Assembly: GCA_947624045.1 (NCBI GenBank)
Contig: CANQIL010000015.1
Coordinates: forward strand, 1-36,101
Direction of reading: 5' to 3'
From: an uncultured Bacilli bacterium
GTDB lineage: Bacteria; Bacillota_I; Bacilli_A; RF39; UBA660
DNA length: 36,101 nt
Of the stretch, positions 7,728 to 13,389 are shown piece after piece. The first letter of the stretch is position 1. Each line of letters opens with the position of its first letter. Made by a program: the position numbers and the translations under genes. Under the pieces are notes generated by a model, which worked only from the letters and a program-made list of their open reading frames with translations, was not told the origin of the DNA and searched no databases.

Positions 7728-8161
7728 AATTTATGTCCTAATTTTTCAAGAGCAAAGGTCGCAAAAGGAGATAAAATTTCTTTTTTTAAATCTTTTATCT
7801 GATACCATTTAGCACCATTTGAGTCACGACCATCTCCATCTTCTTTTAAGGCATCAGAAAGTGTCACTACGGTATATAAAATGCCTATATGGTGCAAGTC
7901 TTCTTCTAAGTTAGGCTTTATTTTCCAAACAATATTAGTCGCAGTTACATCAAAGAGATTATATTTAAGTACTTCTACGTTTGCTTCTTCCATTAATTCT
8001 CTTTTAAGGGCTTCTTCAGGTAATTCAGTATGTTCAATGCCTCCTCCTGGTAAATCTAATTTTCCTTTATAGCCTCCCCTAGCCTTTTTGATTAAGGCGA
8101 TTTGTTCATTTTTTACTATTATGCCATATGCTCCAATGTACGTATTTACAATAGTTTTCAT
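7724..8161 (-). CDS. NUDIX hydrolase, 145 aa
   Basis: Hydrolyses a nucleoside diphosphate linked to another group. The Nudix box is present as GGIEHTELPEEALKRELMEE, which fits G-x5-E-x7-R-E-L-x-E-E; the usual final Gly is Asn here. The metal-binding Glu residues are intact. The length is typical. The ATG at 8161 is preceded by GGGAGG. It is first in the operon with the PMT-type glycosyltransferase, PfkB kinase and Smr protein, overlapping the PMT gene by 4 bp. The substrate (oxidised nucleotide, ADP-ribose, nucleotide sugar) cannot be assigned from the motif; the sugar-handling neighbours make a nucleotide sugar conceivable but unproven. Confidence 0.9.
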   Translation of the reverse strand: MKTIVNTYIGAYGIIVKNEQIALIKKARGGYKGKLDLPGGGIEHTELPEEALKRELMEEANVEVLKYNLFDVTATNIVWKIKPNLEEDLHHIGILYTVVTLSDALKEDGDGRDSNGAKWYQIKDLKKEILSPFATFALEKLGHKL

Positions 8162-8220
8162 GAATACCTCCCAACTTTTATTAAGCTTTTCTATGTAGTA
8201 ATTTACTCAATTGTATCATA

Positions 8221-8253
8221 AAAGAAAGAAAAACTCCATCGCGTGATGAAGTT
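8221..8253 (-). terminator. terminator shared with the first pseudoknot-repeat locus
   Basis: The minus strand has AACTTCATC / GATGGAGTT (9 pairs, one G-U) around loop ACGC, followed by TTTCTTTCTTT. The same hairpin with compensating or wobble changes follows the second array at 10504-10536. Confidence 0.8.
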
Positions 8254-8311
8254 ATTCTATATTTTCAACCAGAATTATTTATTAGTCGCACTTCTAAAAA
8301 AATTTTCAATT

Positions 8312-8405
8312 GTAAATTAAAAGGACCATTAAGAAATTAATTTGCTAACTTCCATCGGTCCCTTTGAATGACCTAGAGCTTCAAAAGTTTTCTAGGCACT
8401 ACTCG
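8312..8405 (-). ncRNA. putative small RNA with hairpin and terminator (copy 1)
   Basis: Downstream of the promoter at 8412-8440, the minus strand carries a hairpin with perfect arms CCTAGA / TCTAGG (8391-8396 and 8372-8377) around a loop containing AAACTTTTGAAGC. A second hairpin, GGACC / GGTCC, is followed by TTTTAATTT (terminator). A related unit with the same loop and changed but still pairing stem is at 10361-10428. There is no open reading frame of note. Function unknown; predicted from sequence signals only. Confidence 0.5.
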
Positions 8406-8411
8406 ATTTAT

Positions 8412-8440
8412 AATATATCAAACCTATATTTATTAGTCAA
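8412..8440 (-). promoter_or_regulatory. promoter of putative small RNA copy 1
   Basis: The minus strand reads TTGACT (8435-8440), a 17-bp spacer and TATATT (8412-8417). Confidence 0.65.
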
Positions 8441-8491
8441 TAACTTTTATGATTTTGTTAATTTATCTTGGAAGTTATTCTATATTTTCTA

Positions 8492-8584
8492 CCAGAATTA
8501 TTTATTAGTCGCACCACCTGGAAGCGAAAAACATTGTCGCCTGGAATCATTTATTTGTCGCACCATCCAGAAGCGAGAAACATT
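8492..8584 (-). ncRNA. pseudoknot-like tandem repeat array 1 (two units, degenerate locus)
   Basis: Two units with a 49-bp period (8541-8584, then 8492-8535 on the minus strand). In each, TCGC pairs with GCGA (stem 1), and a 5-nt segment in the stem-1 loop pairs with a segment downstream of an A/U-rich linker (stem 2): CUGGA with UCCAG in one unit, CCAGG with UCUGG (one G-U) in the other. This order of pairing halves is that of an H-type pseudoknot. A G-U pair that would be A-C on the other strand favours minus-strand RNA. A clear own promoter is not seen: a TTGACA at about 8641-8646 inside the 3' end of the preceding gene has only weak -10 candidates. A further half unit lies at 8264-8291. 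Confidence 0.6.
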
Positions 8585-8611
8585 TTCAAGTTTTTTTGCA
8601 TTTTGATAACA

Positions 8612-9238
8612 TTATCCGGAAATGTAAAATAGAATTGATTTTGTCAATTCAGAGCAGTTGGCAAAACTTTTAATTTTAAATTTATTCAAAATGGCTAATA
8701 GTGTTGTTTCATCTTCAGAATCTATTTTATCAATATCCATCCAAATATCAAAATATTCAATATGGATATCCACTTCATAATCAAAAGAACCAGTTAAATC
8801 GCAATCTCTAAGTAACCATAGTTCGGTATAAAAGCCAATGTCAAATTCACGAAAATTTTCATTAACAAAATAGCCATTATATTTTCTTCCATTCTTTCCA
8901 TATTTTTCATAGCCATAAACTATTTTAAATTTAAAATCATTGGAAAGAATTTCTTCCAAACTAGAGTATTCATCATCGGGAGGAAAAAGCGTATAATCTT
9001 GTTCAGTTACTTTCTTAAATTCACATAATGTTTTATATATTTCTTCTTTAGAAATATCTTTTAAGACAAATAAATCTCCTGTATCATATTCTTTATGAGA
9101 ATATAAATCCATACTAATATATTTTGATAATTTTTCATATAATTTTTTCAATCTAGACTTGTCAAAATTTTTAGATTTACAATATATATGAATACGTGCT
9201 GGTATTCCAGCTGCTAAATATCTTCCTATAAATATCAC
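8612..9238 (-). CDS. hypothetical protein, about 205-208 aa, uncertain start
   Basis: I do not recognise the family. It is a soluble protein rich in aromatic and acidic residues (FDYEVDIHIEYFDIWMDIDKID at its C-terminal third is split here as FDYEVDIHIEYF and DIWMDIDKID) without membrane segments. The start is odd: the only canonical in-frame start, GTG at 9236-9238, is part of the AAGGAG Shine-Dalgarno itself. Initiation at the ATA at 9227-9229, 8 bp after AAGGAG, would give IGRYLAAGIPARI as the N-terminus. Either a rare start codon is used or a former ATG has been lost. It has a strong own promoter (9321-9350). Downstream lies the degenerate pseudoknot array. Function unknown. Confidence 0.65.
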   Translation of the reverse strand: MIFIGRYLAAGIPARIHIYCKSKNFDKSRLKKLYEKLSKYISMDLYSHKEYDTGDLFVLKDISKEEIYKTLCEFKKVTEQDYTLFPPDDEYSSLEEILSNDFKFKIVYGYEKYGKNGRKYNGYFVNENFREFDIGFYTELWLLRDCDLTGSFDYEVDIHIEYFDIWMDIDKIDSEDETTLLAILNKFKIKSFANCSELTKSILFYISG

Positions 9239-9320
9239 TCCTTATTTTTAATCTTAGTTACTATAGTTACTATCATTAATTTAAAATAATCAATAATAAA
9301 TATTTCTTACTGATAATTAA

Positions 9321-9350
9321 ATTATAAAGCATACATTTTTTACTTGTCAA
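9321..9350 (-). promoter_or_regulatory. strong promoter of the 8612-9238 gene
   Basis: The minus strand reads TTGACA (9345-9350), an 18-bp spacer and TATAAT (9321-9326), both full consensus. The leader of about 75 nt contains a repeated TAGTAACTA-type sequence near 9255-9275. Confidence 0.8.
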
Positions 9351-9443
9351 TAAAATTATGTGTTTTTTTTTATACTTTTTTATTTTTTCAAAATCAATAT
9401 AATTTTATACAAAAAGTATTGATAAAATTTTCAAATAACTAAT

Positions 9444-9483
9444 ACAGAAAAATAGGGCTCTATCAATTAAGACAGGGCCCTTG
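9444..9483 (-). terminator. rho-independent terminator of the 9524-10102 gene
   Basis: The minus strand has AGGGCCCTGTC / GATAGAGCCCT (11 pairs with two G-U) around TTAATT, followed by ATTTTT. It is a GC-rich stem in an otherwise AT-rich region. Confidence 0.85.
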
Positions 9484-9523
9484 CAATAAGATTTAACATT
9501 TTTCCTTGCATAAAAAATGCTAA

Positions 9524-10102
9524 TTATGGCTCATTTTTTGAAAAATCAAATTTTTGAGGTATATAATCAAAGTCTTTTGGAATTTCATCTATTTTTACTT
9601 TCTTATTTATATCTTTATCAACTTTATAATATTTATTTTTGTATTTAAAGTAAATTTCTTTATCCTTTATTCCATAAACTTTATATTTTTTATTCATTTT
9701 ATGAACTTTTACTTTTTTTGTTTTTAAATTATAGACATTAATACTTTTATTAGTAAGAGCATATAGATAATTGCCTCTTGCTAATACATAATTTATACTT
9801 TTACAGGTCTTTTCATCTATTGTAAAACGTCTAGTATATGTTTCTCTTATATAAAAAGTTTCTTCAACGTTTGTTCTTTCAGCTATATAACAATTATTAA
9901 AATGACTGTCTTTGAAAAAGACTTTATTTCTAGAATCCCAATAAATATGATTTTTATCATCTATTACTCCCTCACCAGGTATATTAGTGAAAGATTCATA
10001 TTCTGATTTTGTTTTAAAAATAGAATTCTTATTCATAATAAGACAAATACATATACAATATATTAAAACTACAAAGAATACAATTGTTAAAAATTTTTTC
10101 AT
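9524..10102 (-). CDS. membrane-anchored hypothetical protein, 192 aa
   Basis: The family is not recognised. I choose ATG 10102 (MKKFLTIVFF) because GGCGG lies 7 bp upstream; an in-frame start nine codons earlier lacks such a site. One N-terminal membrane segment (FLTIVFFVVLIYCICICLIM, about 4-23) anchors a basic, Lys/Tyr-rich domain of about 165 residues, presumably outside the cell. The domain contains short beta-strand-like repeats with Asn/Lys/Tyr (GNYLYALTNKSINVYNLKTK, KYKVYGIKDKEIYFKYKNKY), which could be propeller-like strands. It has its own promoter (10245-10273) and terminator and sits downstream of the second non-coding cassette. No similarity to known type III toxins is evident. 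Confidence 0.75.
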   Translation of the reverse strand: MKKFLTIVFFVVLIYCICICLIMNKNSIFKTKSEYESFTNIPGEGVIDDKNHIYWDSRNKVFFKDSHFNNCYIAERTNVEETFYIRETYTRRFTIDEKTCKSINYVLARGNYLYALTNKSINVYNLKTKKVKVHKMNKKYKVYGIKDKEIYFKYKNKYYKVDKDINKKVKIDEIPKDFDYIPQKFDFSKNEP

Positions 10103-10244
10103 TAATGCACCGCCTATTCTATTAATCAAATCATCTTTATTGTAAAAGTAGTAAAATTAGACAAATCAATGATCGTTTTCAAATTATTATTATTTAAGTT
10201 ATTTTATATGTTGGATCTTAAAATACTTATGTTTTTCAATATTA

Positions 10245-10273
10245 ATACTATAAGCAATTCTAGAAAAAGTCAA
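10245..10273 (-). promoter_or_regulatory. promoter of the 9524-10102 gene
   Basis: The minus strand reads TTGACT (10268-10273), a 17-bp spacer and TAGTAT (10245-10250). Confidence 0.6.
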
Positions 10274-10360
10274 TTGTAAAGTTTTGAAGGACAGATATTT
10301 ATAAAAAATATAACTTATTAATCACAAAATTATATCTATGTCAAACTACTCATTAATTAG

Positions 10361-10428
10361 AAAAAATAAAACTCAATTTTAATAATTAGAAATTGAATCA
10401 CTTAAGGCTTCAAAAGTTTCTTAGGTAC
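10361..10428 (-). ncRNA. putative small RNA with hairpin and terminator (copy 2)
   Basis: The minus strand shows CCTAAG / CTTAAG arms (one G-U; 10420-10425 and 10401-10406) around a loop with AAACTTTTGAAGC, the same loop as the unit at 8312-8405 but with a different, still paired stem. A CAATTT / AAATTG hairpin followed by AGTTTTATTTTTT makes a terminator at 10361-10395. Predicted length is about 65-70 nt. Function unknown. Confidence 0.5.
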
Positions 10429-10431
10429 CGC

Positions 10432-10460
10432 TTAATATAAAATATGATAGATTGTGTCAA
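10432..10460 (-). promoter_or_regulatory. promoter of putative small RNA copy 2
   Basis: The minus strand reads TTGACA (10455-10460) and, after 17 bp, TATTAA (10432-10437); TATATT at 10434-10439 (15 bp) is an alternative -10. Confidence 0.55.
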
Positions 10461-10503
10461 TACTTTTTAAATTATATTTTCATTTTAATTTATAAAAGTC
10501 ATA

Positions 10504-10536
10504 AAGGAAAAGAAAACTCCATCTTGCGATGAAGCT
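10504..10536 (-). terminator. terminator of pseudoknot-like array 2
   Basis: The minus strand has GCTTCATC / GATGGAGT (8 pairs, two G-U) around GCAA, followed by TTTCTTTTCC. It is homologous to the terminator at 8221-8253. Confidence 0.75.
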
Positions 10537-10551
10537 ATCCTACATTTTCAA

Positions 10552-10648
10552 CTGGGATTATTTATTACTCGCTAGCCACCCAGAAGCGAGAAACATTGTC
10601 GACCGGGATTATTTATTACTCGCTAGCCACCCGGAAGCGAGAAACATT
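10552..10648 (-). ncRNA. pseudoknot-like tandem repeat RNA (array 2) with own promoter
   Basis: Two units with an exact 51-bp period (10603-10648, then 10552-10597 on the minus strand). Each unit has stem 1 CUCGCU/AGCGAG (6 bp). Its loop contains CCGGG (unit 1) or CUGGG (unit 2), complementary to CCCGG or CCCAG located after an 11-nt linker UAAUAAAUAAU. The halves interlock in H-type pseudoknot order with a 1-nt first loop and an A/U-rich third loop. The C-to-U change in one arm is matched by G-to-A in the other. A consensus promoter lies upstream and a terminator downstream, giving a transcript of about 160 nt. The architecture (promoter, tandem pseudoknots, terminator) recalls type III antitoxin RNAs such as ToxI/CptI, but no adjacent toxin gene is recognised. 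Confidence 0.65.
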
Positions 10649-10673
10649 TACGTACTTTTTCAAATGCAATATA

Positions 10674-10702
10674 AGTATACTATATTTTTATGAAAGTGTC
10701 AA
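10674..10702 (-). promoter_or_regulatory. promoter of pseudoknot-like array 2, flanked by inverted repeat
   Basis: The minus strand reads TTGACA (10697-10702), a 17-bp spacer and TATACT (10674-10679). Inverted sequences AGTATACTAT (10674-10683) and ATAGTATAC (about 10703-10711) lie at the -10 and just upstream of the -35, so a regulator could bind both sides. Confidence 0.75.
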
Positions 10703-10758
10703 ATAGTATACGTTAATATTTTTTAACTATGATTAATTATTTTAATTATATCGCAAAA

Positions 10759-13389
10759 TTATTTATTATTTTTTTCATTAATAGCGGCTATGGCAGCAGC
10801 AAGTCTTGCGATAGGTACTCTAAATGGTGAGCAAGAAACATATGATAAGCCAGCTTTATGACAGAATTCTACAGAAGATGGGTCGCCTCCATGTTCACCA
10901 CAGATTCCTAATTTAATATCTGGTCTTGTAGATTTACCTAATTCACAAGCCATTTTAACAAGCTTACCTACACCAACTTGGTCAAGTTTAGCAAATGGGT
11001 CTTGTTCGTAAATCTTTTTCTCATAATAAGAACTTAGGAACTTAGAAGCATCATCTCTAGAGAAACCAAATGTCATTTGTGTTAAATCATTAGTTCCAAA
11101 TGAGAAGAATTCTGCTTCTTTAGCAATCTCATCAGCTGTTAAGGCAGCACGAGGAATTTCTATCATGGTACCAATATGATAATTCATATCAGATTTCTTT
11201 TCAGCTTTTACAGCTTCTGCTGTTTCAATAACAATATCTTTTACATATTTTAATTCTTTTACTTCACCAACAAGAGGAATCATTATTTCAGGAACTATAT
11301 CAAAACCATCTTCTTCTTTTACTTCAATAGCAGCTTCCATTAAAGCTCTTGTTTGCATTTTAGCAATTTCTGGATATGTTACAGCTAAACGACAACCTCT
11401 ATGACCCATCATTGGATTAAATTCATGTAGCTCATCACATTTAGCTTTTAGTTTTTCAGTAGTTATATTCATATCTTTAGCTAAAGCTTCAATTTCACTA
11501 TCTTCTTTTGGTAAGAATTCATGTAGCGGTGGGTCTAGATAACGAACTGTCATTGGTCTGCCAGCTAATTCTTTATACATAGCTTTGAAGTCACCTTTTT
11601 GATATGGAATTAATTTTTCTAAAGCTTTTTCTCTTTCTTCAGTTGTTTCAGCTAGAATCATTTTTCTAATATTAAAGATTCTTTCTTCATCGAAGAACAT
11701 ATGCTCAGTACGGCATAGACCAATTCCCTCAGCACCAAGCTCAATGGCTTTTTTAGTATCTCTTGGTGTATCAGCATTTGTTCTTACACCTAGTTTTCTA
11801 AATTTATCAGCCCATTCCATAACACGACCAAATTCTCCAGAGATAGTAGCTTCAACTGTTGGAATTTCACCATCATAAATATTTCCAGTAGAGCCATCAA
11901 TAGAAATGACATCACCTTCATGGAATGTTTTACCACCAAGTTCAAACTCTTTTTTAGCCTCATTCATTTTAATATCGCCACAACCAGATACGCAGCAAGA
12001 ACCCATACCACGAGCAACAACGGCAGCGTGTGAAGTCATACCACCACGAACTGTTAAAATACCTTGAGATACTTTCATACCGGTAATATCTTCAGGTGAT
12101 GTTTCTAATCTAACTAAAATTACTTTTTTACCTTTATTATGCCAAACTTCAGCATCTTCAGCAGTAAAGACTATTTGACCACTTGCAGCACCAGGAGATG
12201 CTCCTAAACCTTTACCAATAGCTTTTACTTCTTTTAACTTAGCTTGGTCAAATTGTGGATGAAGTAAAGTGTCTAAGTTTCTTGGGTCTATCATCGCAAC
12301 GGCTTCTTCTTCAGTACGCATTTTTTCATCTACTAAGTCGCAAGCTATTTTTAAAGCAGCTTTAGCTGTACGTTTACCATTTCTTGTTTGTAACATATAA
12401 AGTTTACCATGTTCAACAGTAAATTCCATATCTTGCATATCTCGATAATGTTCTTCTAATGTTTTACAAACTTCTTTAAATTGACTGAATGCTTCTGGGA
12501 ACTTTTCTTCCATTTCGGCAATTTTCATTGGGGTACGAACTCCGGCAACAACATCTTCGCCTTGAGCATTAGTTAAAAATTCACCAAATAAGCCTTTTTC
12601 ACCGGTAGCTGGGTCACGAGTAAAGGCAACACCTGTACCACAGTCATCTCCCATATTGCCAAAAGCCATTGATTGAACATTTACAGCTGTTCCCCAAGAA
12701 TAAGGAATATCATTATCTCTTCTGTAAACGTTAGCTCTTGGATTATCCCATGAACGGAATACCGCTTTAATTGCGCCCATTAATTGTTCTTTAGGGTCAG
12801 TTGGGAAGTCACTTTCGATTTTATTTTTATATTCTTCTTTAAATTCTCTAGCTAATTCTTTTAAGTCATCAGCATCCAATTCAACATCTTGAGTTACATT
12901 CTTTTTAGCTTTCATTTTATCGATTAATTCTTCAAAGTATTTCTTACCAACTTCCATAACAACGTCGGAATACATTTGAATAAATCTTCTATAACAATCC
13001 CAAGCCCATCTTGGATTATTACTCTTTTTAGCTATTGTTTCAACAACATCTTCATTTAAACCAAGATTTAAAATAGTATCCATCATTCCTGGCATAGAGG
13101 CTCTAGCACCTGATCTTACAGATACTAATAATGGATTTTCTTTATCGCCAAATTTCTTTCCTGTTATTTCTTCCATTTTTAGGATATATTCATTAATTTG
13201 ACTTTGAATTTCAGAGTTTATTTCTCTTCCATCTTCATAGTACTTAGTGCAGGCTTCTGTTGTAATAGTAAAACCTTGTGGTACTGGCAAACCAATATTA
13301 GTCATTTCAGCTAAGTTAGCTCCCTTTCCGCCAAGAAGTTCTCGCATATTAGCATTTCCTTCACTAAATAAGTATACGTATTTATGCAT
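10759..13389 (-). CDS. ppdK: pyruvate, phosphate dikinase, 876 aa
   Basis: Interconverts pyruvate, ATP and phosphate with phosphoenolpyruvate, AMP and diphosphate in the cytosol; in fermentative bacteria it often works in glycolysis with PPi. The full-length three-domain enzyme is present: an N-terminal ATP-binding domain (GGKGANLAEM, LVSVRSGARASMPGMMDT), the swivelling phosphohistidine domain with the catalytic His in GGMTSHAAVVARGMG near residue 455, and the C-terminal PEP-binding barrel (GLCRTEHMFF, GICGEHGGDP with the family Cys). The length matches the family. The ATG at 13389 follows GGAGGA. It is a single-gene unit with its own promoter (13419-13447). The only terminator found downstream is that of the non-coding cassette at 10504, after the array promoter. 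Confidence 0.97.
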   Translation of the reverse strand: MHKYVYLFSEGNANMRELLGGKGANLAEMTNIGLPVPQGFTITTEACTKYYEDGREINSEIQSQINEYILKMEEITGKKFGDKENPLLVSVRSGARASMPGMMDTILNLGLNEDVVETIAKKSNNPRWAWDCYRRFIQMYSDVVMEVGKKYFEELIDKMKAKKNVTQDVELDADDLKELAREFKEEYKNKIESDFPTDPKEQLMGAIKAVFRSWDNPRANVYRRDNDIPYSWGTAVNVQSMAFGNMGDDCGTGVAFTRDPATGEKGLFGEFLTNAQGEDVVAGVRTPMKIAEMEEKFPEAFSQFKEVCKTLEEHYRDMQDMEFTVEHGKLYMLQTRNGKRTAKAALKIACDLVDEKMRTEEEAVAMIDPRNLDTLLHPQFDQAKLKEVKAIGKGLGASPGAASGQIVFTAEDAEVWHNKGKKVILVRLETSPEDITGMKVSQGILTVRGGMTSHAAVVARGMGSCCVSGCGDIKMNEAKKEFELGGKTFHEGDVISIDGSTGNIYDGEIPTVEATISGEFGRVMEWADKFRKLGVRTNADTPRDTKKAIELGAEGIGLCRTEHMFFDEERIFNIRKMILAETTEEREKALEKLIPYQKGDFKAMYKELAGRPMTVRYLDPPLHEFLPKEDSEIEALAKDMNITTEKLKAKCDELHEFNPMMGHRGCRLAVTYPEIAKMQTRALMEAAIEVKEEDGFDIVPEIMIPLVGEVKELKYVKDIVIETAEAVKAEKKSDMNYHIGTMIEIPRAALTADEIAKEAEFFSFGTNDLTQMTFGFSRDDASKFLSSYYEKKIYEQDPFAKLDQVGVGKLVKMACELGKSTRPDIKLGICGEHGGDPSSVEFCHKAGLSYVSCSPFRVPIARLAAAIAAINEKNNK

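What the first reader, a model, noticed from the sequence alone, without database searches (positions are those of the whole stretch)
10552..10648. Free-standing tandem pseudoknot RNA with covarying stem
Seen: two exact 51-bp units between a consensus promoter (TTGACA-17-TATACT) and a terminator, without an open reading frame. Stem 1 (CUCGCU/AGCGAG) and stem 2 interlock in H-type order. Stem 2 is CCGGG/CCCGG, CUGGG/CCCAG, CUGGA/UCCAG and CCAGG/UCUGG in the four units of the two loci: sequence changes, pairing stays. Established: type III antitoxins (ToxI, CptI, TenpI) are tandem pseudoknot RNAs with a terminator before the toxin. Inference: a related RNA decoy, or a new class of repeat RNA, since no toxin is recognised.
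Basis: partly seen in the sequence, partly recalled or inferred. Interest (0 to 1): 0.85.

Follow-up and report, generated by a model that had tools for sequence, protein, structure and literature searches.

The report
Orphan antitoxin RNA without its toxin
A gut bacterium carries a small knotted RNA of a kind that normally holds a self-poisoning enzyme in check, but here the enzyme gene is gone; the RNA is either a leftover or a standing protection against that toxin when it arrives on mobile DNA.

Summary
On the minus strand, a promoter (10702-10674), two 51-nt units (10648-10598, 10597-10547) and a terminator form a free-standing RNA. Each unit is an H-type pseudoknot. Across 107 distinct relatives, stem 2 is paired in 511/535 cells, with 133 double changes (shuffle maximum 58).

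In 35 of 67 assessable arrays of the same family, the pair and terminator are followed within about 150 nt by a CptN ribonuclease (NCBIfam CptIN, 160 bits against a cut-off of 90; PDB 4RMO, E 5e-18). The RNA is the antitoxin (CptI) of a CptIN type III toxin-antitoxin system. Both window arrays lack the toxin: A is intact and orphan, B decayed.

The same site, just after PPDK, holds complete cptI-cptN in relatives. The genome's only confident CptN is of another subtype. A second orphan RNA, normally upstream of Abi_2 genes, lies beside each array. Orphan cptI arrays recur (25 of 67). CptI-like pseudoknots without CptN also occur in phage genomes, often near tRNA genes.

Identity is nearly certain, toxin loss very likely; a protective (anti-addiction) role is plausible but unproven.

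The parts
10674..10702 (-). promoter of array A, TTGACA-17-TATACT
   Evidence: 11 of 12 matches; same position, 51-63 nt before the first unit, in most toxin-linked arrays
10598..10648 (-). CptI unit A1; pseudoknot core 10641-10603: S1 CUCGCU/AGCGAG, S2 CCGGG/CCCGG, A-rich loop UAAUAAAUAAU
   Evidence: R1 score 74.9 bits
10547..10597 (-). CptI unit A2; core 10590-10552: S2 CUGGG/CCCAG
10506..10540 (-). intrinsic terminator of array A (GGATAGCTTCATC GCAA GATGGAGTTTTCTTTTCC)
   Evidence: -12.8 kcal/mol
10401..10425 (-). orphan Abi_2-type leader hairpin next to array A, with promoter-like 10460-10434 and terminator-like 10396-10361
   Evidence: same hairpin stands directly before Abi_2 (PF07751) genes in relatives
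8536..8584 (-). CptI unit B1 (S2 CUGGA/UCCAG)
8487..8535 (-). CptI unit B2 (S2 CCAGG/UCUGG)
   Evidence: no good promoter or terminator of its own
8372..8396 (-). second orphan Abi_2-type leader hairpin, with promoter-like 8440-8412
8227..8291 (-). 3' half of a third CptI unit of locus B (8291-8264) and its terminator (8258-8227); 8291-8248 repeats 8514-8471 with one mismatch in 44
   Evidence: (30.5 bits)
10759..13389 (-). pyruvate phosphate dikinase (PPDK), the gene after which cptI/cptN and Abi_2 modules recur in relatives

Best explanation
The element is an orphan antitoxin locus of the CptIN family of type III toxin-antitoxin systems. In a complete system the promoter makes a short RNA of two CptI pseudoknots ending at a terminator; occasional read-through expresses the CptN ribonuclease, which cuts the RNA into single units and is locked by them. 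In this genome the cptN gene at this site, after PPDK, has been lost, while the antitoxin gene of array A (promoter, both pseudoknots, terminator) is intact; array B is a decayed copy. Shown here: identity of the RNA, its covarying fold, its partner in relatives, absence of the partner here. Inferred: that it is still transcribed, and that it can bind in trans a CptN of its own subtype (the 'MQNH' subtype, absent from the binned genome) arriving on mobile DNA, so acting as an anti-addiction or anti-abortive-infection decoy.
For: R1 model hits 49 of 193 genomes of the family; 73 arrays, 57 with exactly two units; 35 followed by full CptN, 7 by a remnant, 25 by none within up to 2.5 kb, 6 at contig ends (with two rows re-assigned by hand as given in the full report). 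Toxins score 131-165 bits for NF047359 CptIN (cut-off 90) and match CptN 4RMO. Fold as published for CptI of E. rectale: two repeats, one-base L1, long A-rich L2. Same site in G034: PPDK-cptI-cptN. Array A units are 97% identical to those of complete systems with MQNH-type CptN, but only 79% to the resident C30 array. RNA and toxin divergence correlate (Mantel r 0.65, 0 of 5000 permutations). Only one confident CptN in the whole genome. CptIN occurs inside a conjugation gene cluster (L266).
Against: No transcript or toxin-binding data. The genome is a draft metagenome bin (94% complete, 5% contaminated), so a cognate cptN could lie on an unbinned contig. Intactness of array A may only mean that the toxin was lost recently. 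The Mantel test does not remove shared phylogeny.
Confidence: 0.87

Rival explanations
1. Pure relic: arrays A and B are debris of lost toxin-antitoxin modules with no function, persisting until mutation removes them.
For: Array B has lost promoter, terminator and part of a unit; 12 of 25 orphan arrays are down to a single unit, and 7 arrays keep a toxin fragment; Abi_2 genes beside the same RNA are often broken too.
Against: 13 of 25 orphan arrays keep both units; orphan units keep stem 2 at 94.6% of cells against 97.4% in toxin-linked ones; array A keeps every element.
Confidence: 0.45
2. Trans-acting supplement to the resident system: arrays A and B add antitoxin for the complete cptIN on contig C30 of the same genome.
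For: C30 carries a complete promoter-cptI-terminator-cptN.
Against: A and B units are about 79% identical to C30 units and belong with a different toxin subtype; published cross-inhibition tests show high specificity between CptI and CptN (PMC5086642).
Confidence: 0.12
3. New class of structured RNA (free-standing riboswitch or sponge) unrelated to toxin-antitoxin systems.
For: No Rfam family matches; no toxin in the window.
Against: The same RNA stands before CptN in 35 arrays with the diagnostic type III layout.
Confidence: 0.03
4. Assembly artefact: toxin genes collapsed or lost because near-identical arrays break assemblies.
For: Several relatives' contigs end within about 40-500 nt of an array.
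Against: Both window arrays are internal to a 36-kb contig with unique flanks of kilobases on both sides; the orphan state recurs in independent assemblies and at PPDK in L110, L115 and L189.
Confidence: 0.05

Closest known systems
CptIN type III toxin-antitoxin (CptI of Eubacterium rectale, PDB 4RMO; PMC4627078, PMC5086642)
   Same: Two tandem repeats, each an H-type pseudoknot with very short L1 and long A-rich loop (AUAAAU motif in both), terminator after the repeats; toxin next to relatives is CptN by curated HMM and by 4RMO match.
   Different: Units of 49-51 nt instead of 45, different stem sequences; in the window there is no toxin gene.
pseudo-ToxI of phage PhiTE (PMC3475682)
   Same: Type III antitoxin-like repeats without a toxin; shown to neutralise a type III toxin in trans.
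   Different: ToxI family, on a phage; the window copies are chromosomal and CptI family, trans activity untested.
Orphan OrzP (type I antitoxin RNA of E. coli without zor toxin; PMC11264685)
   Same: A solitary RNA antitoxin on a chromosome, there shown to be expressed.
   Different: Type I (antisense), not a protein-binding pseudoknot.
AbiF/Abi_2 with RNA RCd22 (PMC12373285)
   Same: The second RNA beside both window arrays precedes Abi_2 genes in relatives, as RCd22 precedes abiF.
   Different: One short hairpin not matched by the Rfam abiF model; orphan in the window.

Membership tests
CptI-type antitoxin RNA | tandem repeats of one short unit | tested here: met
   57 of 73 family arrays have exactly two units
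CptI-type antitoxin RNA | H-type pseudoknot, very short L1, A-rich long loop | tested here: met
   covariation; compared with PMC4627078
CptI-type antitoxin RNA | Rho-independent terminator after the repeats, own promoter | tested here: met
   array A; array B: not met
CptI-type antitoxin RNA | homologous arrays lie directly upstream of CptN | tested here: met
CptI-type antitoxin RNA | cleaved by and inhibits CptN | not testable with these tools
   needs expression experiment
complete CptIN system (at the window locus) | toxin gene downstream of the terminator | tested here: not met
   no convincing CptN trace in the window
ToxIN / TenpIN | toxin of ToxN or TenpN family | tested here: not met
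   Pfam ToxN_toxin at most 17.5 bits (cut-off 25); NCBIfam assigns CptIN
Rfam families (riboswitches, abiF and others) | score at or above gathering threshold | tested here: not met

The most novel reading that the evidence does not exclude
Solitary CptI pseudoknots are a recurrent class of RNA decoy: bacterial chromosomes keep orphan cptI arrays matching toxins they do not carry, as anti-addiction or anti-abortive-infection guards, and phages carry CptI-like pseudoknots, often near tRNA genes, to disarm CptN-type defence.
Probability: 0.35. Interest if true: 0.75.

Novelty: new variant of a known kind. Interest (0 to 1): 0.55.

Why it matters
It identifies an RNA without a Rfam match as the antitoxin of a large set of CptIN systems in uncultured gut Bacilli, with 107 distinct units that prove the pseudoknot by covariation. 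It shows that type III antitoxins often survive without their toxin, so toxin-based searches miss them. It also gives a directly testable case of an RNA antitoxin acting against toxins carried by others, on a chromosome and possibly in phages.

Tried and rejected
Rfam at gathering and at relaxed thresholds: nothing for either RNA. Pfam, PHROGs, PADLOC and NCBIfam on the 201-aa and 208-aa neighbours: no toxin; they are not CptN or Abi_2 by relaxed tblastn. Riboswitch idea (A-rich loop pseudoknot as in preQ1-I or SAM-II): dropped once CptN was found downstream in relatives. The marginal CptIN hit on contig C57 (16.9 bits) falls in a long zinc-ribbon-like ORF and was not counted. Chance pattern hits in viral contigs without a stem 2 (for example L279, L282, L283, L288) were discarded. 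Blower et al. 2012 (PMC3401426) is not held, so their catalogue could not be checked for orphan loci.

Full report
Observation. The stretch 10552-10648 lies in a gap between PPDK (10759-13389, minus) and small unknown ORFs. Read on the minus strand it is promoter TTGACA-17-TATACT, two 51-nt units and a terminator. The units are 92% identical rather than exact. The minus-strand frames are closed. Three more copies lie in the genome: 8584-8487 in the window, a pair on contig C30 and one unit on C4.

Structure. Ten units from three genomes gave stem 2 paired in every sequence, with double changes in all five pairs; sliding the partners by 1-3 columns dropped paired cells (both stems) from 97% to 29-47%. 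A covariance model of one unit (R1) found arrays in 49 of 193 sampled genomes of the family. In 107 distinct units, stem 2 is paired in 511 of 535 cells with 133 double-change cells (1000 shuffles: maximum 58). Stem 1 also covaries (UCGC/GCGA to CCGC/GCGG; 22 against a maximum of 12). The pseudoknot is real.

What it is. In most relatives the two units and terminator are followed on the same strand by a ~157-aa ORF beginning MKIQTGYLYHIKDEFF. It passes the curated NCBIfam model CptIN (131-165 bits against 90) and matches the solved CptN toxin 4RMO (E 4.9e-18). The published CptI of E. rectale has two repeats, an H-type pseudoknot, a one-base L1 and a long adenine-rich loop. Its repeat, read from the primer in that paper, shares the AUAAAU loop motif and the final GGUUGA. 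The window RNA is a CptI-type antitoxin.

Orphan state. Of 73 arrays, 57 have exactly two units and none has more. After re-assigning two rows by hand (G185:C25:18306 has its own toxin at +65; G053 is cut by the contig end), 35 have a full CptN, 7 a remnant, 25 none within up to 2.5 kb, and 6 stop at a contig end. Both window arrays are in the 'none' class; relaxed searches find no convincing trace of CptN or Abi_2 in 8001-10760. The site itself is informative: in G034, G185, G188, G093 and others the order after PPDK is cptI-cptN on the same strand. Orphan arrays at the same site recur in L110, L115 and L189. Array A keeps an 11/12 promoter and a -12.8 kcal/mol terminator; array B has neither and is followed by a half unit.

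Which toxin. Toxin and RNA divergence correlate over 33 complete systems (Mantel r 0.65, 0 of 5000 permutations, maximum 0.44), with the caveat of shared descent. Array A is closest (2.8% different) to arrays that guard 'MQNH' CptN, and array B to similar ones (6.9%). The only confident CptN of this genome (C30) is of the 'MTNH' subtype, and its own array differs from A and B by about 21%. Since CptI antitoxins are reported to be highly toxin-specific, A and B probably do not serve the C30 toxin. A role against incoming CptN is consistent with this, and a complete cptIN sits among conjugation genes in L266, but no experiment supports it yet.

Second RNA. Beside each array stands a hairpin CCTANN-AAACTTTTGAAGC-NNTAGG with a promoter-like sequence before it. 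In 193 genomes there are 27 exact matches. At least seven stand directly before an open Abi_2-like frame, two of them confirmed as Abi_2 by Pfam (150-155 bits). The stem varies with pairing kept. AbiF-type proteins are known to be held by an RNA. In the window this RNA also lacks its protein. The region after PPDK is thus a recurrent site of RNA-held abortive-infection modules, of which only the RNA parts remain here.

Phage copies. A pattern constraining only stem 1 and the start of the A-rich loop hit 13 viral stretches, and all 13 have a stem 2 (one through a G-U pair). Eleven of the 13 hold no CptN in the DNA fetched, although one of these (L271) ends right after the unit. L265 lies beside 14 tRNA genes and L260/L261 beside 4-5, on the same strand. 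Geobacillus virus E3 carries a tandem pair between PhoH-like and PolI genes. Of 128 Pseudomonas phage records matching a similar single unit, the Pakpunavirus and Roomu-2 records examined place it beside tRNA genes, with paired changes in EM and Roomu-2. Over 16 such units stem 2 is paired in 80 of 80 cells; permuting partners gives at most 61 (the units were partly chosen for having the fold). R1 recognises the L265 unit at E 1.7e-11, others weakly. Membership of the Pseudomonas units in the CptI family is not established. The analogue is pseudo-ToxI of phage PhiTE.

Verdict. Identity about 0.95; toxin loss about 0.87; retained protective function open, near even with plain relic.

Noticed in passing
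L260:1650-1830(-), L261:1790-1920(-), L265:2680-2830(-), L269:800-900, L270:7590-7720, L272:11030-11090, L275, L278; KP144388.1 (L296:1440-1560): CptI-like pseudoknots (single or tandem, stem 2 covarying) in phage contigs and in Geobacillus virus E3 without CptN in the DNA held, several beside tRNA genes: possible phage decoys against CptN.
   Followed up: partly
L281:1097-1142 and Pakpunavirus records (L298, L299), L297: A similar single pseudoknot beside tRNA-Gln/tRNA-Trp in Pseudomonas phages (128 records match by DNA), with compensatory changes in EM and Roomu-2; relation to CptI unproven.
   Followed up: partly
window 10425-10401 and 8396-8372 (minus); C4 and C14 of the genome; 27 places in the family: Conserved leader hairpin with invariant loop AAACUUUUGAAG found before Abi_2 genes, often orphan; no Rfam match.
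   Followed up: partly
3' flank of PPDK, window 10759 downwards; L044, L047, L054, L057, L060, L062, L091, L100, L217: Recurrent same-strand site for cptI-cptN and Abi_2 modules right after PPDK, a candidate defence hotspot.
   Followed up: partly
window 8471-8514 and 8248-8291: 44-nt direct repeat (one mismatch) of a CptI 3' half and terminator start on both sides of the Abi_2-type hairpin, probably the scar of a duplicated and deleted module.
   Followed up: partly
L266:4592-5239 (IMGVR_UViG_3300011008_002676): Complete promoter-cptI-terminator-cptN inside a gene cluster that looks like conjugation genes, labelled viral.
   Followed up: partly
window 9524-10129 and 8612-9238 (minus): Two unknown ORFs (201 and 208 aa) between the orphan RNAs, without any family match.
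   Followed up: no
L094:1637-2887: A 416-aa protein without a convincing Pfam match lies between two copies of the Abi_2-type hairpin, a possible other cargo of that RNA.
   Followed up: no
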